In this document: in pieces, positions 34,142 to 43,141 of the stretch
Layout of the letters: each line of letters begins with the position of its first letter
Numbering within the stretch: the first letter of the stretch is position 1
From: Actinomycetota bacterium
Lineage (GTDB): Bacteria; Actinomycetota; Actinomycetes; Streptosporangiales; Streptosporangiaceae
Length of the DNA: 63,228 bases
Direction: 5' to 3'
NCBI GenBank assembly: GCA_027314515.1
Contig: DAHVAR010000208.1
Location: 1 to 63,228, forward strand
Program-made: the position numbers and the translations under genes
Notes under the pieces: model-generated
Database searches by the model: none
Seen by the model: only the letters and a program-made list of their open reading frames with translations
Told to the model about the DNA's origin: nothing

Positions 34142-34236
34142 TAGGGGAACGGGCCGGCTCGCCGCCAGTCGCATTCGGTCGCCGGCTTCCGCCCGCCGGG
34201 CAATCAGGCGGTTAGGACCGATAGGGTGTGTCGGCT

Positions 34237-35895
34237 ATGGGCGTAATTAACGACATCGCAGAGCAGTATGTGGTCCGGATGACCGACCTCGACCCGGTTC
34301 TCGCCACCGGCGTCGGGATCGCCGGCCACGATCATCAGCTGACCGACCTTAGCCCCGACGGGTTTGCCGCCAGGGCCGGGCTGGACCGGACGACTGTCGC
34401 CGCGCTGACCGCGGCAAAGACCGAGACCGAGCGGGAGCGGGTCGCCCGGGCGGCGATGCTGGAACGGCTCGGCCTGGCCGTCGAGCTCTATGACGCCGGC
34501 GAGACCGCGAGCGAACTCAACGTGATCGCGAGCTGGGTCCAGGGAGTGCGTCAGGTCTTCGACCTGATGCCGACCGAGGGGGAGGAAGCGCAGCGCAACA
34601 TCGCAGCCCGGATGGCCGCGGTTCCTGCCGCCTACGCCGACTTGCGGCAGACCTATGCCGAGGCGGCGGTTCGCGGCCGGGTGGCCGCGCGCCGTCAGGT
34701 CATCGAGTGCGCCCGGCAATGCGCGCAGTGGTCGGCGCCCGGTGCGGGCTTCTACCACGGTCTGGTTGATCGCACGGGCGCCACCGGAGCGCTGCTGGCG
34801 GACCTGAGGGTGGCCGCCGACGCCGCCAGCGCGGCGACTGCTGAGCTCGGCAAGTTCCTGGAGACTGAGCTGCTGCCGCTCGCGCCGGAGCGTGATGCCG
34901 TCGGCCGGGACAGGTACGCGCTCGCATCACGCAGCTTTCTCGGTGCGGTGATCGATCTGGACGAGGCATACACCTGGGGCTGGGGCGAGGTAATCCGGCT
35001 CGAGGCCGAGATGGCGCGAGTCGCCGGCCTCATCGTGCCGGGCGGCAGCGTCGAAGAGGCGACCGCGCACCTGGACGGCGATCCTGCCCGGCAGATCACC
35101 GGCGCACAGAACCTCAGGTCCTGGATGCAGGATTTCGCTGACAGCACCATTGCCGCGCTGCACGGGACGCACTTCGACATCCCGGAGCCGGCCCGGCGGA
35201 TCGAGGCGATGATCGCCCCGACCAGCGATGGCGGGATCTACTACACCGGCCCCAGCGAGGACTGGACCAGGCCAGGGCGGATGTGGTGGACCGTGCCGGA
35301 CGGAGTCGGGCAGTTCTCCACCTGGAAAGAGATCACCACGATCTATCACGAGGGCGTGCCCGGACATCACCTGCAGGTCAGTCAGCAGGTCTTCGAGAAG
35401 CAGTCGCTGAACCGCTGGCAGCGGCTGCTGTGCTGGGTGTCCGGGCATGGCGAGGGCTGGGCGCTGTACGCGGAGCGGCTGATGGCGGAACTCGGTTACC
35501 TGGCTGATCCGGGGGCCATGCTCGGCATGCTGGACGCCCAGCTGCTGCGCGCGGCCCGGGTGGTCGTCGACCTCGGCGTGCATCTGGAACTGCCGATCCC
35601 GGCGGGCAGCCGCTGGCACCCGGGCGAGACCTGGACCGCCGAGCTGGCCTGGGAGTTCCTGCACAACCGGGTGCACATGGACGAGGAGATGCTGCGGTTC
35701 GAGCTGAACCGGTACCTGGGCTGGCCGGGACAGGCCCCCGCGTACAAGCTCGGCGAGCGGATCTGGCTGCAGGCCAGGGATGAGGCCCGGCAGCGCAAGG
35801 GCGCGGAGTTCAGCCTGAAGGACTTCCACAGCCAGGCACTGGCGCTGGGAGCGCTGGGCCTGGATCCGCTGCGGGATGCGCTGGCCAGGCTCTGA
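34237..35895 (+). CDS. DUF885 family zinc-dependent hydrolase
   Basis: A 552-residue protein of the DUF885 family, all-helical putative metallopeptidases. The signature HEGVPGHH lies at 371-378 (HExxH-like, with His371, His377 and His378), and a likely third ligand is in GHGEGWALYAERL. No signal peptide is seen, so it is probably cytoplasmic. ATG 34237 begins MGVINDIAEQYV; a GTG at 34228 is an alternative. Members have rarely been studied and the substrate is open. The gene is isolated: the next gene is broken. Confidence 0.85.
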   Translation: MGVINDIAEQYVVRMTDLDPVLATGVGIAGHDHQLTDLSPDGFAARAGLDRTTVAALTAAKTETERERVARAAMLERLGLAVELYDAGETASELNVIASWVQGVRQVFDLMPTEGEEAQRNIAARMAAVPAAYADLRQTYAEAAVRGRVAARRQVIECARQCAQWSAPGAGFYHGLVDRTGATGALLADLRVAADAASAATAELGKFLETELLPLAPERDAVGRDRYALASRSFLGAVIDLDEAYTWGWGEVIRLEAEMARVAGLIVPGGSVEEATAHLDGDPARQITGAQNLRSWMQDFADSTIAALHGTHFDIPEPARRIEAMIAPTSDGGIYYTGPSEDWTRPGRMWWTVPDGVGQFSTWKEITTIYHEGVPGHHLQVSQQVFEKQSLNRWQRLLCWVSGHGEGWALYAERLMAELGYLADPGAMLGMLDAQLLRAARVVVDLGVHLELPIPAGSRWHPGETWTAELAWEFLHNRVHMDEEMLRFELNRYLGWPGQAPAYKLGERIWLQARDEARQRKGAEFSLKDFHSQALALGALGLDPLRDALARL

Positions 35896-35956: not shown

Positions 35957-36777
35957 ATGAAGGTTCGCATCGGCATCGGCATCGGCCTCGGTCCGTTCGC
36001 GACGCCCGGCGGGCTCGCAGCCGCGATCGGCCCGATCGAAGCCGCTGGCATCGACTCGCTGTGGCTCAGCGAGGTTGTCTACGGCGACCTGGTCGCTCCG
36101 CTGGCCGGGATGGCGTACACGCTGGCCAGGACGAGCCGGCTCAAGGTCGGCACGGGTGTCGCGGTGCTGCCTGGCCGGCACCCGGTGCTGGTGGCAAAGG
36201 AACTGGCCTCGCTCGCGGCGCTGGCGCCGCGTCGTGTGCTGCCCGTGTTCGGCCTGCGCCGCCGTGTTCGACGAATCGCTGGAGTTGCTGAAGCTGCTGC
36301 TGACCCAGCAGAACGTGTCCTTCTCCGGCAGGTTCTTCACCGTGACGGGGGCGAGCGTCGGGCCGCTGCCGGCCAGGCCGCTCGACATCTGGCTGGGCGG
36401 CAGCGCGCCGGAAGGGCTGCGCCGGGCCGGCAAGTACGGCGACGGCTGGCTCGGCAGTTACCTGACCCCGGCAGAGGCGCGGGCGGCGCGCGAGCAGATT
36501 CAGGCAGCGGCCGCGGCGGCCGGGCGCGAGATCGACCCGGACCATTTCGGCGTCAGCCTCGCGGTCGGCGAGATCACGCCGGACCTCGCCAGGGCTATCG
36601 AGCGCCGGCGGCCCGGCGACGCTGGCGCCGGCGGGCTGGGCGCAGGCGCGCCACATGATCGAGGCGTACGTCGATGCCGGGCTGAGCAAGTTCGTGGTCA
36701 GGCCCGCCGCGGCCGCACCGGGCGCGGACCGGTTCATCGGCGAATTCGCCGACCAGCTGCTCCCGCTGGAGAACTGA
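35957..36777 (+). pseudogene. LLM-class flavin-dependent oxidoreductase, broken
   Basis: Three frames are needed to read it. ATG 35957 opens MKVRIGIGIGLGPFATPGG through VGTGVAVLPGRHPVLVAKEL to LPVFGLR. The frame then changes near 36255 to AAVFDESLELLKLLLTQQNVSF, PARPLDIWLGG and RRAGKYGDGWLGSYLTP. It changes again near 36610 to ARHMIEAYVDAGLSKFVVRP and a stop at 36775-36777. The first junction also lacks roughly 15-20 residues expected in relatives. F420- or FMN-dependent luciferase-like monooxygenases have this pattern. As written it cannot make a full protein. Confidence 0.75.
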
Positions 36778-36819: not shown

Positions 36820-37455
36820 TCACCGGGCCAGCGCGGAGTCACCGGCTGCTCCCGACGCCATGGTGGCGCTCTGGAAGCTGCTCAGGAGCAGGTCAAGCAT
36901 CTGAACCTGACGCTGCGGGGTTATCCGGTCCGGATACAGGACGCGCTCGGCGCTGAGCCCGTCGATGAGCACGACCAGCTGGTGGGTCGCCAGCTCCGGG
37001 TCGCAGCCGTCGGCTAGTTCACCGAGTGCGGCCGCCTCCTCGATGTGGCCGCGCAGCCGGTCGCAGAGCCGGTCGAACTCGGTGTGCTGCAAGTCCCGCA
37101 TCGCCAGGTTACCGAGTGCCCGGCCCCAGAAGCTGATCTCGATCTGCGCTTCGAGATCACGCCGGTCATCCAGCGGCAATGCTTCCAGCATGACGGCCCG
37201 CAGCGCGGCAAGCCCGGTCAGCCCCCTGGCCGCCGCCCCCATCCGGGCGCCTACCCGCCGGTGCGAGTGCACGAGGGCTGAGCTGAGGATATCGGCCTTG
37301 TCATCGAAGTAATGGCCGAGGATCCCGCGCGAGCAGTTCGCTTCCCTGGCAATCGCGCGAATGGTCGCGCCAGCGATCCCGTCGCGGGCGATCACCCGCC
37401 AGGTGGCCAGGAGGATCTCGTCCCGCCGCTCATCCCAGTCAACGATCTTGGGCAT
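36820..37455 (-). CDS. TetR/AcrR family regulator (BetI-like), divergent from the aldolase operon
   Basis: A 211-residue regulator. The HTH is at about 25-46 (GATIRAIAREANCSRGILGHYF), followed by DDKADIL, a pattern of BetI-like TetR proteins. The C-terminal helical domain is complete. ATG 37455 (MPKIVDWDERR) is chosen over the longer frame because the family motif starts there. It diverges from the four-gene aldolase-kinase-aminotransferase-permease operon with an 86-bp gap that holds several GTCCG/ATCCG half-sites, so it probably controls that operon. Confidence 0.88.
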   Translation of the reverse strand: MPKIVDWDERRDEILLATWRVIARDGIAGATIRAIAREANCSRGILGHYFDDKADILSSALVHSHRRVGARMGAAARGLTGLAALRAVMLEALPLDDRRDLEAQIEISFWGRALGNLAMRDLQHTEFDRLCDRLRGHIEEAAALGELADGCDPELATHQLVVLIDGLSAERVLYPDRITPQRQVQMLDLLLSSFQSATMASGAAGDSALAR

Positions 37456-37515
37456 CGCACATCCGCTCGGAGGTCTGACATTCGTCCGCCAGCACATTAC
37501 CGTCTGTTTTTTTGT

Positions 37516-37525
37516 CGGACGTCCG
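37516..37525. promoter_or_regulatory. Palindrome in the TetR/aldolase intergenic region
   Basis: CGGACGTCCG is a perfect 10-bp palindrome 16 bp upstream of the aldolase start, with further CATCCG and CGTCCG half-sites at 37531 and about 37487. A plausible operator for the divergent TetR protein. Confidence 0.4.
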
Positions 37526-37541
37526 TCTAACATCCGTTCTA

Positions 37542-38201
37542 ATGCATGGCAACGCTGACCTGCAAACCGCCCGCGAGCAGCTGGTGAGCTACTGCGGGCG
37601 GATGGTCGCGGACGGGCTGGCCGTCGGCGCGGCGGGGAACCTGAGCGTGCGGGCGGGCGACCTGGTGGCGATCACCCCGTCCGGGGTGAGCTATGCCGAC
37701 CTGGTCCCGGCCGACATCTGCGTCACGACGCTGACTGGCGAGGAAGTCGACGCGCCGGAAACTCCGTCCAGCGAGCTGCCGATGCACCTGGCGGTCTACG
37801 CGGCCACCGGTGCGGCGGCAGTGGTGCACACGCATTCAGCCGAGGTGATCGCGGTGTCGGCCACCTCGGCCGAACTGCCGGCCGTGCACTACGCGATCAC
37901 CGGGCTCGGTGGCCCGGTGCGGGTGGCTGCCTACGCCAGGTTCGGCTCGGCCGGGCTGGCCGAGGCTGCCGTGGCCGCGCTGGCCGGGCGCAGCGCCGCG
38001 ATCCTGCAGAACCACGGGGCGGTCTGCTACGGCCGGACCCTGCCGGAGGCCTACGACCGGGCGGTGCTGCTGGAGTGGCTGGCCAGGGTGTACCGGCTTG
38101 CCTGCGCTCACGGCGTGCCGAGGATCTTGTCCCAGGCCGAGCTGGACGACGTCGCCGCCGAAGCGCGACGGCGCCACTACGGGCAACGGCGGCAGCGATG
38201 A
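37542..38201 (+). CDS. Class II aldolase/adducin family protein (FucA-like)
   Basis: A 219-residue metal-dependent aldolase of the fuculose/rhamnulose-phosphate aldolase family. Active-site parts are visible: NLSVRAGD and TPSGVSYADL (phosphate binding), Glu78 in SSELPMH, and zinc ligands His96 and His98 in VVHTHSAEV with His158 in LQNHGAV. It would cleave a sugar-phosphate-like substrate into DHAP, or a related ketone, and an aldehyde. ATG 37542 has no clear ribosome site, so the mRNA may be leaderless. First gene of a four-gene operon; its stop overlaps the kinase start (ATGA). Confidence 0.87.
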   Translation: MHGNADLQTAREQLVSYCGRMVADGLAVGAAGNLSVRAGDLVAITPSGVSYADLVPADICVTTLTGEEVDAPETPSSELPMHLAVYAATGAAAVVHTHSAEVIAVSATSAELPAVHYAITGLGGPVRVAAYARFGSAGLAEAAVAALAGRSAAILQNHGAVCYGRTLPEAYDRAVLLEWLARVYRLACAHGVPRILSQAELDDVAAEARRRHYGQRRQR

Positions 38202-39217
38202 CCGCCGGGCCGGCGCACGGCGCTGGCGCGCCGCGCAGGATAGCGGTCATCGGGCCGCACATCCTGGACGTGCTCGGCCGTCCGGTCGAATCGATACCGG
38301 CCGGGCAGGGCAGCGTCAGGCTCACCGAGATCCGGGCCACCGCGGCCGGAACCGCCGCCGGCACGGCCGTCGACCTGGCCAAGCTCGGCAACAGCGTGTT
38401 CGCGATCGGAGCAGTCGGAACCGACCTGCTGGCCGACATCCTCATCGCCGCACTGGCCGCTCATGGCGTCGACACCGGCGGCATCGTCAGGACAACGGCA
38501 GCCCAGACGTCCGCTACCATCCTGCCGGTCAGGCCGAATGGCGAGCGTCCTGCCCTGCACGTGCCCGGCGCCACCAGGCTGCTCCGGATCGGCGACATCG
38601 ACCTGGCCGCACTGGCCGGATTCGATGCGGTACTGCTCGGCGGTCCCGACGCGCTGTCCGGCCTGTCCGGCGCCGACCTGGCGGCCGTCGTCACGGCGGC
38701 AAAAGAGGGCGGCGCGCTGGTCGCGATCGACGTCCTGCATCCGGGCAGCGAGCGGGACTTCGCGCGGATCAGCGCCGCGCTCGGCGGCGCGGACTGGTTC
38801 TGGCCGAACGCCGATCAGCTTCTCGCCCTGACCGGCCGCGCGCACCTGGAGCTAGCGATCGCTGACGTGCTCGCACGTGGCGCCGGCGGCGTGGCGGTGA
38901 CGCTTGGTGCGGACGGTTGCCTGGTTACGGCCAGGCGTGGTGGCGCCGGCAGCGCCTTTGACCTGATCCACCTCCCGGCGCCCGCGGTGGCCGTGGTCGA
39001 TACCACCGGCTGTGGCGACGGGTTCGACGCGGGCATGCTGACCGGCCTGCTGCTCGGCTGCGACCCCGTCGACGCTGCCCGGCTGGGCGTTGCCTGTGGT
39101 GCGCTGGTGGCGACAGGACTCGGCTCTGACGCGGGCCTGCAGAGCCTCGGTCAGGTACTCGATTTCCTGACCGGCGCAAGCACAACGGCAATCAGCACAG
39201 CGGAGCGAACGGCATGA
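38198..39217 (+). CDS. PfkB family carbohydrate kinase
   Basis: A 339-residue ribokinase-fold enzyme that phosphorylates a sugar or sugar-like alcohol with ATP. Signs are GTAAGTAVDLAKLGNSVFAIGAVG (substrate site GG-type loop), WPNADQLLALTG, VTLGADGCL and the signature Asp268-TTGCG-Asp274 with the catalytic base Asp274. The usual DTxGAGD is here DTTGCGD. It overlaps the aldolase stop and the aminotransferase start by four bases each, so all three should be made in fixed proportion. It most likely makes the phosphate that the aldolase cleaves. Confidence 0.88.
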   Translation: MTAGPAHGAGAPRRIAVIGPHILDVLGRPVESIPAGQGSVRLTEIRATAAGTAAGTAVDLAKLGNSVFAIGAVGTDLLADILIAALAAHGVDTGGIVRTTAAQTSATILPVRPNGERPALHVPGATRLLRIGDIDLAALAGFDAVLLGGPDALSGLSGADLAAVVTAAKEGGALVAIDVLHPGSERDFARISAALGGADWFWPNADQLLALTGRAHLELAIADVLARGAGGVAVTLGADGCLVTARRGGAGSAFDLIHLPAPAVAVVDTTGCGDGFDAGMLTGLLLGCDPVDAARLGVACGALVATGLGSDAGLQSLGQVLDFLTGASTTAISTAERTA

Positions 39218-40512
39218 CGGATCAGCTAGTCCGAGCGGACAACCGGGACTTCAGGCCGCGGAACGCGGATGAGCAACTGCGCCGCAGGGCCAGGGCGGTG
39301 ATTCCCGGCGGGATGTACGGGCATCAGTCGGCGGGCCCGCTGCCGCCGGAATACCCCCAGTTCATGCGGGCGGGACGCGGTGCGCGCGTCTGCGACGTCG
39401 ATGGCAACGAGTACGTCGACCTGATGTGCAGCTACGGCCCGGTCGTGCTCGGGCACCGGCATCCCGCCGTCGAGGCCGCCGCGGCCGCGCAAGCGGAACT
39501 CGCCGACTGCCAGAACGGGCCCGGACCGGTAATGGTCGAGCTCGCCGAGTTGCTTGTCGGCACTGTGCGGCACGCGGACTGGGCGATGTTCGCCAAGAAT
39601 GGCACGGACGCGACGACGATGTGCGCCACGATTGCCCGGGCGCATTCCGGCCGGTCGCAGATTCTGGTGGCCAAGGGCGCTTACCACGGTGCCGCGCCCT
39701 GGTGCACCCCCCGCCTCGCGGGCGTTACCGCGGCGGACCGCGCCAACCTTGGCTACTACACGTTTAACGACCTGGCCTCGGTCACGGTGGCAGCCGAGGA
39801 GGCCGGGCAGGACCTGGCGGGCATCGTGGTCAGCCCGTTCAAGCACGATGCGGGCTTCGACCAGGAACTCGTGGACCCGGCGTTCGCCGTCGGCTTGCGC
39901 GAGCTGTGCACGCGGACCGGCGCCGCGCTGATCCTGGACGACGTGCGCTGCGGCTTCCGGCTGCACCTCGGGTCGAGCTGGGAGCCCATCGGCGTGCTGC
40001 CGGACCTGTCGGCCTGGAGCAAGGCCATCGCCAACGGTCATCCGCTTGCCGCCGTCCTCGGCTGCGGCGGTTACGCCGACGCGGCCGCCAGCATCTTCGC
40101 GACCGGCTCCTTCTGGTTCTCGGCCGTGGCGATGGCCGCGGCGATCGCCACTATCGGCGCGCTGCGCGCCGAGGGTGCCATCGAGGCGATGGACCGGACC
40201 GGAAGAGCGCTGCGCGCCGGGATCCTGCAGCAGGCCGCGGCGCGCGGCATCGAGATCAACTACACCGGGCCCGCGGCCATGCCGTACCTGACCTTCGCGG
40301 GAGACCGCGGTCACGACCTGGCCGGCACGTTCGCGGCGGCGGCCATCCGGGCCGGGGCATACCTGCATCCGCGCCACAACTGGTTCATCTCTGCGGCGAT
40401 GACCGGCGCAGATCTGGCCAAGGTCCTCGCCGCGACCGACGAGGCCTTTGCCGCCGTGCAGCTACGACAAAACGAAGGCCGGGCACGACAACACGAAGGC
40501 GGGACCACATGA
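39214..40512 (+). CDS. Class III aminotransferase (glutamate-1-semialdehyde aminomutase-like)
   Basis: A 432-residue PLP enzyme. Family marks are VIPGGMYGHQSAGPLPPE (the GSAM-like PGG start), MFAKNGTDATTMCATIARAH (phosphate cup), LILDDVRCGFRLHLG (Asp of DxVR in place of DEV) and the PLP lysine Lys270 in WSKAIANGHPL. It could remove or move an amino group on the imported compound. It is not likely to be HemL: it sits in a catabolic operon and lacks heme genes nearby. ATGA overlaps both neighbours. Confidence 0.87.
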   Translation: MTDQLVRADNRDFRPRNADEQLRRRARAVIPGGMYGHQSAGPLPPEYPQFMRAGRGARVCDVDGNEYVDLMCSYGPVVLGHRHPAVEAAAAAQAELADCQNGPGPVMVELAELLVGTVRHADWAMFAKNGTDATTMCATIARAHSGRSQILVAKGAYHGAAPWCTPRLAGVTAADRANLGYYTFNDLASVTVAAEEAGQDLAGIVVSPFKHDAGFDQELVDPAFAVGLRELCTRTGAALILDDVRCGFRLHLGSSWEPIGVLPDLSAWSKAIANGHPLAAVLGCGGYADAAASIFATGSFWFSAVAMAAAIATIGALRAEGAIEAMDRTGRALRAGILQQAAARGIEINYTGPAAMPYLTFAGDRGHDLAGTFAAAAIRAGAYLHPRHNWFISAAMTGADLAKVLAATDEAFAAVQLRQNEGRARQHEGGTT

Positions 40513-42008
40513 GCACTGACGAATCGGCCAGGCGGGCCGGAGCAGCCGTGGCGGCCGGCAACGGCCCGGAGGCCATCCTGGCCAAGGCGGGCTACAAGCC
40601 TGAGCTGCGCAGATCGCTGCGCTTCTTCTCGATGTTCGCCATCGCCTTCTCGATCATCTCGATCACGACCGGGATCTTCCTCAACTACAGCGCCGGGCTG
40701 AAGTACTGGGGGCCGGCGTCGATCTGGACCTGGCCGATCGTCGGCGTGGGCAACATCATGATCGCGCTCGTCGTCGCCGAACTCGGCACCCGGATCCCGC
40801 TAGCCGGATACGCCTACCAGTGGAGCGGCCGGCTGGTGAACTCCACCTACGGCTGGTTCGTGGGGTTCGCCGGCCTGCTCTACATGAGCGTGGGCGGCGG
40901 CGCGATCATGCTCGGCGTCGCCTCGCCGCTGCTGCTCAGCGAATTCGGCGTGAATACGCCGAGCGCGCGTCTGGTCCTGGCGGTGGCACTGATCCTGATG
41001 GTGCTGCCGGTAATCATCAACATCATCAGCATCCAGGTAGCCGCACGGGTGAACAACGTCGCCGTGTTCACCGAGATCATCGGGACCGTCGTCTTCGGCA
41101 TCCTGCTGCTGGTGCTCTGGGGGCTCAAGACCAAGCCAGCACCGTATGGCGCGAGCATCCTTACTAACACGACCGCCTTGCTGCACAATCCGACCATCTA
41201 CGCGTTCGCGCTCGCTGGCCTCATGGGGGCGTTCACGCTGGTCGGCTTCGAACTCGCCGCCGACATGTCCGAGGATGCCGTCGATCCGCGGCGGAGCGTG
41301 CCGCGCGGAGTCATCCTGGCGGTGGTCGGGTCCGCCGTGCTCGGCATGATCGCGCTGATCGGGTTCACCATCGCGATCCCGGACCTGAAGGCCGTGGAAA
41401 CCGCGCCGCTGCCGCTGCTGGCGATCGCCGGATACTGGCTGCCGGGCTGGCTCGTCAAGGTGTTCATCGCGTTCGTCATCTTCTCGATGTTCGCGATCCT
41501 CGTGGTCGGCGCGGGCGCGCAGGCGCGACTGGCGTACTCGATGGCGCGCGACAACATGCTGCCGTTCAGCAAGCAGCTGCGGAAGGTGAACGCCAGCAGC
41601 CAGACGCCGATCGTGGCACTGCTTGTCTTCGCCGTCGTCGACATCGGCGTGACCTGGTACGGCTACCTGCAGGCCAGCGCGTTCAACACGCTGGTCGGGG
41701 CGACCGCGGTCATCCCGTACATCATCTACTTCCTCATCACGGCCGGCTATGCCTACAGGCGGCGGGCGCTGGACTCGATCCCCGGCGCGTTCTCGCTGGG
41801 CCGGTGGGCCTGGCCGGTGATCATCTTCGTGCTGCTGTACAGCGCGCTGATCATCTTCGTCCTGTCGGTACCCGGACCGTTCCACGCTGCTGACAAGGTC
41901 GTGGCCTACGGAGCGGGCCTGGCGCTGCTGTGGTACGTAGCTGCGCTGTTCTGGCGCCTGCGTCGCGGGACCGCCGGGGTGAAGCCGGTCGAGGAACTCC
42001 TCGACTGA
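40509..42008 (+). CDS. APC superfamily amino acid/amine permease
   Basis: A 499-residue permease with about twelve membrane helices. The N-terminus LRRSLRFFSMFAIAFSIISITTGIFLNY is the typical APC first helix with the unwound substrate site. Further APC marks are AELGTRIPLAGYAYQW and AGLMGAFTLVGFELAADMSEDAVDPRRSVPRG. Relatives carry GABA, choline, ethanolamine and other amines. Its ATGA overlap with the aminotransferase implies it imports the operon's substrate. Confidence 0.9.
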   Translation: MSTDESARRAGAAVAAGNGPEAILAKAGYKPELRRSLRFFSMFAIAFSIISITTGIFLNYSAGLKYWGPASIWTWPIVGVGNIMIALVVAELGTRIPLAGYAYQWSGRLVNSTYGWFVGFAGLLYMSVGGGAIMLGVASPLLLSEFGVNTPSARLVLAVALILMVLPVIINIISIQVAARVNNVAVFTEIIGTVVFGILLLVLWGLKTKPAPYGASILTNTTALLHNPTIYAFALAGLMGAFTLVGFELAADMSEDAVDPRRSVPRGVILAVVGSAVLGMIALIGFTIAIPDLKAVETAPLPLLAIAGYWLPGWLVKVFIAFVIFSMFAILVVGAGAQARLAYSMARDNMLPFSKQLRKVNASSQTPIVALLVFAVVDIGVTWYGYLQASAFNTLVGATAVIPYIIYFLITAGYAYRRRALDSIPGAFSLGRWAWPVIIFVLLYSALIIFVLSVPGPFHAADKVVAYGAGLALLWYVAALFWRLRRGTAGVKPVEELLD

Positions 42009-42247: not shown

Positions 42248-43141
42248 TCACCTGGCCCGGCTCGCGGTGCGCACGAGCACGTCGGTCGTCGAGTGGTCGG
42301 CCAGGTGAGGCTGGCTCGTGACGGCATGGGACGCCAGGCGGCCAGCGACGCTGACGGAAAACGACTTTGTCGCCAGGCTCGCGCCACCGTTCCACAGCTC
42401 GAAGCCCGCCTCCACGTCGATCAGGTACCACGAACGGCTGATGTAGCCGCGGCGCACCGCGTCGGCTACCAGCGCCCGCAGGTCCAGGTTGCTGATCGAG
42501 GTGGCGGGGGTGGTGAGCGTGTAGGAGACGGTGTTCCAGCCCTGGTTGCCGAACCACACGTTGTAGCTGCGGCCGCCGATGACGACGTTGCCGGCGACTT
42601 CCGAGCCGTAAGGCCGCACATGGCCGTGGTGGTTCAGCCAGATCATCAGCTCGGCGCCGTCAGGCTGGCCGCCGGTGGTCGGCGTCCGGTTGAACCAGAT
42701 GTCATACGCCACGTTGTAGACACTGCTGCCGCCGGGCTGGGCGGTGCTCCAACTGGTCGTCATCGTGCCGGCCCTGATGTTCGATACCTGGATCGGAAGT
42801 CCGCTGCCGGGCGTGCACGCGCCCCAGTGACAGCCCTTGTAGATGGCCGGATAGCCGCCCGGCCCGCTGTGCTGCGAGCTAACGATCGAGGAGTTCGCCA
42901 CCCTGAAATCAGCGTTGCCGTTGGTGGTGATGCATTCGCGCGCACTCGAGCCCCACTCGTTGTTCTCAACCGTGTACGCGCCGCCGTCGACCGGAGCGGT
43001 CTGCGAGTGGCACAGCCTCGTGGTGCCGACTGCCGCCGAGGTGATTGCAGGCAGTCCCACCGACAGCAGTCCGCCCGCCAGCAGTCCGCCCGCCACCAGC
43101 AGCGCGGCAGGTAGGGCGAGGGTACGTGCGAGCGGGTTCAT
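42248..43141 (-). CDS. Secreted GH12 endoglucanase
   Basis: A 297-residue secreted cellulase of glycoside hydrolase family 12. A signal peptide with a long hydrophobic core (about 8-36) ends near AITSAAV. The beta-jelly-roll domain runs from about 45 to 255: YTVENNEWGS, the nucleophile Glu164 in DGAELMIWLNHHG, and the acid/base Glu248 in EAGFELWNGG. A short tail follows, with no cellulose-binding module. It cuts internal beta-1,4-glucan bonds. It stands alone, so regulation is unclear. Confidence 0.9.
   Translation of the reverse strand: MNPLARTLALPAALLVAGGLLAGGLLSVGLPAITSAAVGTTRLCHSQTAPVDGGAYTVENNEWGSSARECITTNGNADFRVANSSIVSSQHSGPGGYPAIYKGCHWGACTPGSGLPIQVSNIRAGTMTTSWSTAQPGGSSVYNVAYDIWFNRTPTTGGQPDGAELMIWLNHHGHVRPYGSEVAGNVVIGGRSYNVWFGNQGWNTVSYTLTTPATSISNLDLRALVADAVRRGYISRSWYLIDVEAGFELWNGGASLATKSFSVSVAGRLASHAVTSQPHLADHSTTDVLVRTASRAR

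What the first reader, a model, noticed from the sequence alone, without database searches (positions are those of the whole stretch)
37455..42008. A four-gene, fully overlapping operon that looks like an undescribed amino-compound degradation pathway
A class II aldolase, a PfkB kinase, a GSAM-like class III aminotransferase and an APC permease are each joined by ATGA overlaps, with a BetI-like TetR regulator opposite. The catalytic residues are intact in all (aldolase His96/98/158, kinase Asp274, PLP Lys270). The logic is import, deamination, phosphorylation, then aldol cleavage. The set does not match fucose, rhamnose, deoxyribose-phosphate or ethanolamine pathways that I know: there is no isomerase, and the importer is an amino-compound permease.
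Basis: partly seen in the sequence, partly recalled or inferred. Interest (0 to 1): 0.68.

Follow-up and report, generated by a model that had tools for sequence, protein, structure and literature searches.

The report
Transaminase-first route for amino polyols
Four joined genes and a repressor in a soil actinobacterium look like one switchable route that imports an amino-polyol-like compound, swaps its amino group for a keto group, adds a phosphate and splits it into a glycolysis intermediate and an aldehyde; the amino-removing enzyme belongs with one known for destroying the mould toxin fumonisin.

Summary
In detail: aldolase, PfkB kinase, class III aminotransferase (AT) and APC permease are joined by three ATGA overlaps (38198-38201, 39214-39217, 40509-40512), with a divergent TetR gene. 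The AT is not GSAM: its nearest solved relative is FumI, which deaminates hydrolysed fumonisin B1 (E 8e-132 against 8e-45 for GSAM; model Z 55 against 46). AT, PfkB and aldolase lie together in 44 of 80 related loci; kinase and AT are fused in one. A promoter with an embedded CGGACGTCCG-type site precedes whichever module gene comes first and matches once exactly in the genome. Elsewhere an OtnK or FGGY kinase, or a split transketolase, takes over. All fit one AT product type, HOCH2-CO-CHOH-R. Best explanation: import, transamination, C1 phosphorylation, retro-aldol cleavage to DHAP plus an aldehyde. R is not determined; transporters favour a small soluble amine, FumI kinship keeps phytosphingosine-like lipids open. 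No step is assayed. No matching paper was found in the searches made. A new variant of ketose-1-phosphate aldolase pathways, with a transaminase instead of the isomerase.

The parts
36820..37455 (-). TetR-family repressor (TetR_N + BetI-type C-terminal domain)
   Evidence: TetR relative within 8.5 kb of the AT in 43 of 80 loci; its sequence distances track those of the AT (Mantel r 0.89, 40 loci)
37503..37535 (+). Putative promoter with embedded operator: site TCGGACGTCCGTCTA at 37515-37529 (palindrome CGGACGTCCG at 37516-37525), -10-like TAACAT at 37528-37533; start codon 12 bases after the 15-base site, so the transcript may be leaderless
37542..38201 (+). Class II (FucA-type, zinc) aldolase, 219 aa; proposed to cleave a ketose-1-phosphate-like compound to DHAP + aldehyde
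38198..39217 (+). PfkB-family kinase, 339 aa; proposed to phosphorylate the C1 hydroxyl next to the keto group
39214..40512 (+). Class III aminotransferase of the FumI (aminopentol aminotransferase) group, 432 aa
40509..42008 (+). APC-superfamily amine/amino-acid permease, 499 aa; proposed importer
   Evidence: relative of this permease within 8.5 kb of the AT in 21 of 80 loci

Best explanation
The operon is one TetR-repressed catabolic unit for a 2-amino-polyol-like compound, HOCH2-CH(NH2)-CH(OH)-CH(OH)-R. The APC permease imports the free amine. The FumI-type transaminase turns the C2 amine into a ketone, giving a 2-ketose-like HOCH2-CO-CH(OH)-CH(OH)-R without any isomerase. The PfkB kinase phosphorylates the C1 hydroxyl. 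The FucA-type zinc aldolase splits C3-C4 into dihydroxyacetone phosphate (to glycolysis) and the aldehyde R-CHO. The TetR protein sits on CGGACGTCCG between the promoter elements and leaves when a pathway compound binds. Shown by sequence: gene families, intact catalytic residues, overlaps, conserved promoter site, recurrent association. Inferred: every reaction, the order, the repressor's ligand and site. Not determined: R. I think a small soluble amine more likely than a long-chain base.
For: AT: best solved relative FumI, which transfers the 2-amino group of a 2-amino-3-ol to pyruvate (PMC2933618, Background section); at 38 chosen positions window and FumI differ at 4. Kinase: nearest folds are YdjH (3in1, 3h49) and then YihV (7ag6); YihV makes sulfofructose-1-phosphate, which an aldolase splits into DHAP + aldehyde (PMC12890257, passages). 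Aldolase: aligned to FucA (1fua) with Zn histidines, Glu, Asn, Ser and Tyr kept. Replacement logic: OtnK-type kinase above the 3-oxo-tetronate kinase cut-off (372 against 350 bits) beside a FucA-like, not OtnC-like, aldolase in L133; FGGY xylulokinase-like kinase directly after the AT in L080 in a genome without a PfkB relative (G107); transketolase relatives within 8.5 kb in 20 of 80 loci, one such genome without a PfkB relative (G109); a 2-oxoacid/acetoin-dehydrogenase-type E1 in L127 and L132. Unit: AT, PfkB and Ald together in 44 of 80 loci; Mantel r 0.945 (kinase), 0.908 (aldolase), 0 of 2000 permutations as high; kinase and AT form one uninterrupted 712-aa reading frame in Nonomuraea maritima (L081, 1 of 12 Nonomuraea-type loci compared). 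In 8 of 8 family genomes with PfkB-AT but no adjacent aldolase, one of 48-53% identity is encoded elsewhere. Operator: 38 hits in 80 loci, 36 placed by script just upstream of a module gene, a 37th (L035) in the tetR-aldolase gap by eye, 1 stray; reversed pattern 1 hit. Transporters: AT-APC5 pairs without kinase or aldolase in 8 mycobacterial loci; weakly PotD-like binding protein in L102.
Against: No assay, no expression data. FumI sits on a long branch (1.42 changes per column) and its own substrate lacks a C1 hydroxyl, so its specificity may not carry over. G005/L034 keeps aldolase and AT but has no kinase orthologue (best 33%, E 1e-17; draft 88% complete). L033, L038, L039 have PfkB-AT-APC without an adjacent aldolase, and in those genomes only weaker (43-44%) or partial (62% over 144 residues) aldolases were found; L071 also lacks one but its contig ends there. 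22 of 80 loci show neither kinase, aldolase nor transketolase within 8.5 kb, some because contigs end. No operator was found (up to 2 mismatches) where the aldolase lies elsewhere. An OtnK-type kinase is compatible with a four-carbon acid instead.
Confidence: 0.55

Rival explanations
1. The substrate is a long-chain sphingoid base, above all phytosphingosine from fungal and plant ceramides: 2-amino-1,3,4-triol to 2-keto-1,3,4-triol, 1-phosphate, then DHAP + pentadecanal.
For: FumI deaminates a sphinganine analogue. Phytosphingosine has exactly the 2-amino-1,3,4-triol head (PMC7711896, passage). A true S1P-lyase family gene (E 1.4e-180 to 5k1r) lies about 5 kb upstream of the AT in one relative (L038), and PLP decarboxylase-fold relatives (Pyridoxal_deC) open the Blastococcus operons L065, L068, L095. 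Amide hydrolases or cyclase-family genes lie near the AT in 24 of 80 loci, as a ceramide route would need.
Against: Transporters are of small-amine or peptide type (APC, Opp-like, PotD-like). Neutral ceramidase PF04734 is absent from the window's genome; 2 of 20 genomes with the AT (G011 weakly, G023) have a match against 11 of 80 without it. The best S1P-lyase relative in the own genome is 28% identical. L080 puts the AT among sugar-isomerase-like genes.
Confidence: 0.17
2. The AT acts on a carboxylated amine (3-amino-2,4-dihydroxybutanoate-like); the kinase makes 3-oxo-tetronate 4-phosphate and the class II enzyme decarboxylates it to DHAP + CO2, as in the OtnK/OtnC route.
For: OtnK-type kinases beside the AT in L133, L127, L132; L133's reaches the curated 3-oxo-tetronate kinase cut-off. 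OtnC and FucA share a superfamily.
Against: The class II partners score far below the OtnC cut-off (window 91, L133 111, L127 106 against 250 bits) and higher with FucA-type and ribulose-1-phosphate aldolase models, though below those cut-offs too. No such amino acid is known to me as a common natural compound (recall).
Confidence: 0.12
3. The operon is biosynthetic or reversed: aldolase joins DHAP and an aldehyde and the AT aminates the product to make an amino polyol.
For: Aldolases and transaminases are reversible (general knowledge).
Against: An ATP kinase does not run backwards in practice (general knowledge); a permease closes the operon; amide hydrolases and importers recur.
Confidence: 0.06
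4. A loose genomic habit: AT plus permease is the real unit and kinase and aldolase serve another sugar under the same regulator.
For: AT-APC5 pairs without kinase or aldolase in 8 mycobacterial loci, of which only L073, L082 and L092 hold 8 kb on both sides; 3 of 4 of the genomes searched (G102, G103, G105) have no PfkB relative at E 1e-15. Separate losses of kinase or aldolase.
Against: 44 of 80 loci hold all three and their evolution is correlated; ATGA overlaps; a kinase-AT fusion in L081; an aldolase elsewhere in 8 of 8 genomes that lack it locally.
Confidence: 0.1

Closest known systems
FumI, aminopentol (hydrolysed fumonisin B1) aminotransferase of Sphingopyxis sp. MTA144 (PDB 6hbs, 6hbv)
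   Same: About 50% identity, near-identical fold (Z 55, rmsd 1.2 over 407 residues), shared active-site residues
   Different: FumI acts in fumonisin degradation on a substrate without a C1 hydroxyl; I know of no kinase or aldolase in that cluster (recall, its sequence was not examined); FumI is a long single branch in the tree
Sulfoglycolytic EMP pathway (YihS-YihV-YihT) and its transketolase variant (sulfo-TK, SqwGH)
   Same: Ketose, C1 kinase related to this one, aldolase to DHAP + aldehyde; and the same kinase+aldolase versus transketolase alternatives (PMC12890257, passages)
   Different: Entry is an isomerase there and a transaminase here; YihT is a class I aldolase, this one FucA-type; sulfonate genes were not looked for
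L-fucose, L-rhamnose and ribulose-1-phosphate aldolase pathways
   Same: FucA-type class II aldolase giving DHAP from a ketose 1-phosphate (recall)
   Different: Isomerase and FGGY or other kinases there (recall); no curated FucA or ribulose-1-phosphate aldolase cut-off reached
OtnI/OtnK/OtnC four-carbon acid sugar route
   Same: Kinase + class II enzyme of the same superfamily; OtnK-like kinases take the place of PfkB in some relatives
   Different: No OtnC-level score, PfkB kinase in the window, a transaminase instead of dehydrogenase and isomerase

Membership tests
FumI-type aminotransferase group | Closest solved relative by sequence and by fold | tested here: met
   E 7.9e-132, next family 7.8e-45; Z 55.2 against 45.9 for the next entry
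FumI-type aminotransferase group | Active-site residues shared with FumI (MYGH, W123, KNG, W163, VRxGxR, W256, SFWF, HxxHN) | tested here: met
   window and FumI agree at these positions (34 of 38 chosen); L002 and L004 (own-genome paralogues) differ at most of them; read off the same alignment, so descriptive
FumI-type aminotransferase group | Nests with FumI in a tree | tested here: inconclusive
   FumI is a single long branch at a midpoint root; no second outgroup was used
FumI-type aminotransferase group | Deaminates hydrolysed fumonisin B1 | not testable with these tools
   needs an assay
Glutamate-1-semialdehyde aminomutase (HemL) | Curated HemL score | tested here: not met
   208.2 against 398 bits and 184.6 against 527.3 bits
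Class II aldolase / FucA superfamily | Pfam Aldolase_II and zinc histidines | tested here: met
   158.9 against 22.2 bits; H96, H98, H158 in 53 of 53
L-fuculose-phosphate aldolase (FucA equivalog) | Curated equivalog score | tested here: not met
   104.8 against 400.25; 168 against 264 bits
Ribulose-1-phosphate aldolase (haloarchaeal equivalog) | Curated equivalog score | tested here: not met
   172.1 against 300 bits
3-oxo-tetronate 4-phosphate decarboxylase (OtnC) | Curated equivalog score | tested here: not met
   91.4 against 250 bits
PfkB carbohydrate kinases | Pfam PfkB and catalytic Asp in the GxGD motif | tested here: met
   145.5 against 25.8 bits; D274 in 64 of 64
Ribokinase / IolC / other named PfkB equivalogs | Curated equivalog score | tested here: not met
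   best 86.0 against 300 bits
BetI choline repressor | Curated BetI score | tested here: not met
   63.5 against 201.3 and 64.5 against 118 bits
TetR regulator with BetI-type C-terminal domain | TetR_N and TetR_C_6 domains | tested here: met
   40.8 against 24 and 73.5 against 27 bits
Ketose-1-phosphate aldolase catabolic pathways (as in sulfo-EMP) | Aldose-ketose isomerase entry | tested here: not met
   no isomerase among the operon genes; the rest of the genome was not searched for one
Ketose-1-phosphate aldolase catabolic pathways (as in sulfo-EMP) | Phosphorylation at C1 and DHAP formed | not testable with these tools
   inferred from the nearest kinase folds and the aldolase residues

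The most novel reading that the evidence does not exclude
A widespread, still undescribed soil pathway funnels amino polyols (or their N-acyl forms) into glycolysis by transamination straight to a ketose; its core has been rebuilt with three unrelated kinases or a transketolase, and the fumonisin-detoxifying transaminase FumI was recruited from this older aminopolyol or sphingoid-base metabolism.
Probability: 0.3. Interest if true: 0.7.

Novelty: new variant of a known kind. Interest (0 to 1): 0.52.

Why it matters
It would give a natural role to the enzyme group that mycotoxin work draws on for fumonisin detoxification, and add a transaminase entry to the ketose-1-phosphate aldolase pathways. 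The conserved operator makes regulation and inducer directly testable, and the enzyme set is small enough to assay in one tube (DHAP read-out).

Tried and rejected
Paper searches (open-access library only) for the gene combination, sphingosine or phytosphingosine catabolism by bacteria, chloramphenicol routes, aminopentol + aldolase, and fuculose + class III aminotransferase listed nothing that describes this operon, judged from titles and abstracts' beginnings; YdjH/YdjI papers listed looked off-topic by title. FumI's enzymology paper is not held. Two sections of a paper on further FumI-like transaminases (PMC9858248) gave no natural substrate. Chloramphenicol-type aryl serinols were considered and dropped: a 2-keto-1,3-diol has no beta-hydroxyl for a retro-aldol (own reasoning). 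Neutral ceramidase as a co-occurring marker failed. The kinase has Gly at 55 in 63 of 64 sequences, where I recall an Asn in many PfkB sugar kinases; first read as a hydrophobic pocket, then dropped, because I recall that YihV lacks that Asn too. Operator search for other regulon members: one 2-mismatch site in the own genome (C172), inside the start of an unrelated 1017-aa gene, and exact matches to a looser pattern in G029 and G067, which lack the AT, beside unrelated genes: taken as chance. The first ORF clustering was spoiled by antisense ORFs and replaced by codon-scored gene calling, which itself misses some genes: L055 and L106 have no called AT and were left out of the operon-chain count, hence 78. 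Comparison rows L003, L005 and L008 were the wrong frame or poorly aligned and are not used. The called L035 aldolase start overlaps tetR; L035 was left out of alignment A3. The ABC transporter near the aldolase in L188 looked sugar-type by eye, but Pfam confirmed only a generic permease and nothing for the binding protein.
Full report
The observation. The window lies in an unnamed 280-contig draft genome of 5.86 Mb; several close relatives are labelled Streptosporangiaceae, and Trebonia kvetii is near. The four genes run in one direction and overlap by ATGA at 38198-38201, 39214-39217 and 40509-40512; the TetR gene is divergent. The aldolase start is most likely ATG 37542: the alternative TTG 37512 lies inside a conserved promoter-like stretch.

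What the enzymes are. By Pfam the set is Aldolase_II, PfkB, Aminotran_3 and AA_permease_2, with TetR_N + TetR_C_6 for the regulator; none of the five proteins reaches a curated NCBIfam cut-off among the rows shown (the table shows 25 of 30 families for the aldolase and 25 of 66 for the AT). The AT is closest to FumI (6hbs, E 7.9e-132; the next hit is a GSAM at 7.8e-45). The AlphaFold model (mean pLDDT 90) superposes on FumI with Z 55, rmsd 1.2 over 407 residues, against Z 46 for the next entries. FumI transfers the 2-amino group of hydrolysed fumonisin B1 to pyruvate (PMC2933618, Background section read). In one search window AT and FumI agree at 34 of 38 chosen positions, while the two usable paralogues of the own genome (L002, L004) differ at most of them. 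In the tree FumI is a long single branch, so the kinship is at group level and substrate transfer is not safe.

The kinase model (pLDDT 90) is nearest to E. coli YdjH (3in1, 3h49) and then YihV (7ag6). YihV forms sulfofructose-1-phosphate, which is cleaved into DHAP and sulfolactaldehyde (PMC12890257, passages read). The aldolase aligns with FucA (1fua and variants) along most of its length: H96, H98, H158 and Y131 are kept in 53 of 53 sequences, E78, N33 and S76 in 52 of 52; that their FucA counterparts bind zinc or phosphate or act in catalysis is recalled. It scores far below the curated 3-oxo-tetronate-phosphate decarboxylase cut-off (91 against 250 bits).

How the set travels. AT relatives were fetched from 80 loci (the best 80 of 364 relatives found). 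Within 8.5 kb of the AT: PfkB + aldolase 33, PfkB + aldolase + transketolase 11, transketolase only 9, PfkB only 4, aldolase only 1, none 22. Some 'none', 'PfkB only' and 'transketolase only' are cut by contig ends or by distance: in the L102 genome aldolase and PfkB lie on the same contig next to ABC-transporter genes, beyond that radius. AT distances correlate with those of kinase (r 0.945, 48 loci), aldolase (0.908, 45) and TetR (0.892, 40), with 0 of 2000 permutations as high; relatedness of the hosts contributes to this. In Nonomuraea maritima (L081) kinase and AT are one uninterrupted reading frame of 712 codons, kinase part residues 3-306, AT part 307-710; the 11 other Nonomuraea-type loci looked at have two genes. 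A sequencing error cannot be excluded for a single case. Of 100 genomes sampled around the window, its own included, 20 have the AT at E <= 1e-60. In eight of these (G017, G023, G030, G034, G035, G040, G045, G051) PfkB-AT stands without an adjacent aldolase, but 8 of 8 encode an aldolase of 48-53% identity elsewhere; there it lies near a DUF885 gene in L188, L189 and L193, and near ABC-transporter-like genes in at least these three. Exceptions stay: G005/L034 has no kinase orthologue; the L033, L038 and L039 genomes have no good full-length aldolase (43-44%, or partial).

Replacement of parts. On plasmids of Shinella, Agrobacterium and Pseudoroseomonas the AT sits by an OtnK-type kinase and a class II aldolase; of the two kinases scored, the Pseudoroseomonas one passes the curated 3-oxo-tetronate kinase cut-off (372 against 350) and Shinella's does not (281), and both aldolases are FucA-like rather than OtnC-like. 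In Novosphingobium capsulatum the AT sits between aldolase and a PfkB-type kinase, with a TetR gene and a TonB receptor near. In Variovorax it is followed, after a GntR gene, by split transketolase, amidase and penicillin acylase. In L080 an FGGY kinase (xylulokinase-like, 290 against 380 bits) follows directly. No PfkB relative was found at E <= 1e-15 in the L080 genome (G107) nor in the genome of L069, a transketolase locus (G109); but the L060 and L102 transketolase genomes do have one (G108, G110). Transketolases use 2-ketoses with a C1 hydroxyl; a C1 kinase needs the same hydroxyl; acetoin-dehydrogenase-type E1 enzymes (a relative stands in L127 and L132) cleave ketols. These are general biochemical facts, and together they point to an AT product HOCH2-CO-CH(OH)-R. 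For a FucA-type retro-aldol a hydroxyl on the next carbon is needed as well, hence the proposed 2-amino-1,3,4-polyol.

What the substrate might be. For a small soluble amine: the APC permease (best NCBIfam relatives: urea-carboxylase-system permease and TIGR00907, both below cut-off), AT-APC5 pairs in 8 mycobacterial loci without kinase or aldolase (only L073, L082 and L092 hold 8 kb on both sides), a weakly PotD-like binding protein (L102, 60 against 582 bits), Opp/Dpp-like importers, sugar-isomerase-like genes in L080. For an N-acyl precursor: amidase, penicillin acylase, GGT, DMFase-like or cyclase genes in 24 of 80 loci (Pfam confirmed for one representative each; cyclases PF04199 are only loosely amide hydrolases). 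For a sphingoid base: FumI kinship and an S1P-lyase gene about 5 kb from the AT in one close relative. Against it: neutral ceramidase is missing from the own genome and does not follow the AT (2 of 20 with the AT, 11 of 80 without), and the best S1P-lyase relative in the own genome is 28% identical. R stays open.

Regulation. Between tetR and the operon lies TTTTTTTGTCGGACGTCCGTCTAACATCC; related forms stand in Nonomuraea and Acidimicrobia. A 15-base pattern with up to one mismatch hits 38 times in the 80 loci (1.18 Mb): 17 before the aldolase, 13 before PfkB, 5 before the permease (all in mycobacteria, where tetR is the last gene), 1 before the fused kinase-AT gene of L081, 1 in L035, unassigned by the script because the called aldolase start overlaps tetR, and 1 stray (L064); the reversed pattern hits once. 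The pattern was written after seeing some of these sites, so its count is descriptive; the move to the permease gene in mycobacteria was not built in. In the own genome there is one exact match to a 16-base form, and one more at two mismatches. The site therefore moves with the head of the operon, which supports joint regulation by the linked TetR protein; binding is not shown. No site was seen by the distant aldolase genes.

Verdict. A real, conserved, probably co-regulated catabolic module. Each family is known; the combination (transaminase entry, ketose-1-kinase, FucA-type aldolase) was not found in print in the searches named. I call it a new variant of a known kind, with confidence 0.55 in the scheme and much less in any one substrate.

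Noticed in passing
window 35957-36775 (+): A luciferase-like monooxygenase gene is spread over three reading frames in the window, while the close relative L029 has an uninterrupted 291-aa gene (Bac_luciferase) between the same neighbours. Assembly error or decay, not decided.
   Followed up: partly
L081:7083-9221: Kinase and AT fused into one reading frame in Nonomuraea maritima; direct evidence of a functional link if the sequence is right.
   Followed up: partly
window 34228-35895 (+): DUF885 protein upstream of the operon; DUF885 genes are also near the aldolase in Nonomuraea loci and in L188, L189 and L193. The own genome has two DUF885 genes, so the link may be chance.
   Followed up: partly
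L065, L068, L095: Blastococcus operons combine a PLP decarboxylase-fold protein, amidases, GGT, AT, aldolase, cyclase-family protein, PfkB and TetR in one strand run, with a penicillin acylase too in L065 and L095: the richest version of the module.
   Followed up: partly
L058 and L082 (Mycolicibacterium sp. P1-18): One genome holds two AT paralogues, one with permease-kinase-aldolase-TetR, one with only an APC permease.
   Followed up: no
L080:1233-10687: Operon-like run with L-fucose-isomerase-like, GPI-cupin and shikimate-dehydrogenase-like genes, a second class III AT, APC, the FumI-like AT and an FGGY kinase: a possible key to the substrate.
   Followed up: partly
window 42248-43141 (-): Glycosyl hydrolase family 12 protein next to the operon.
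   Followed up: no
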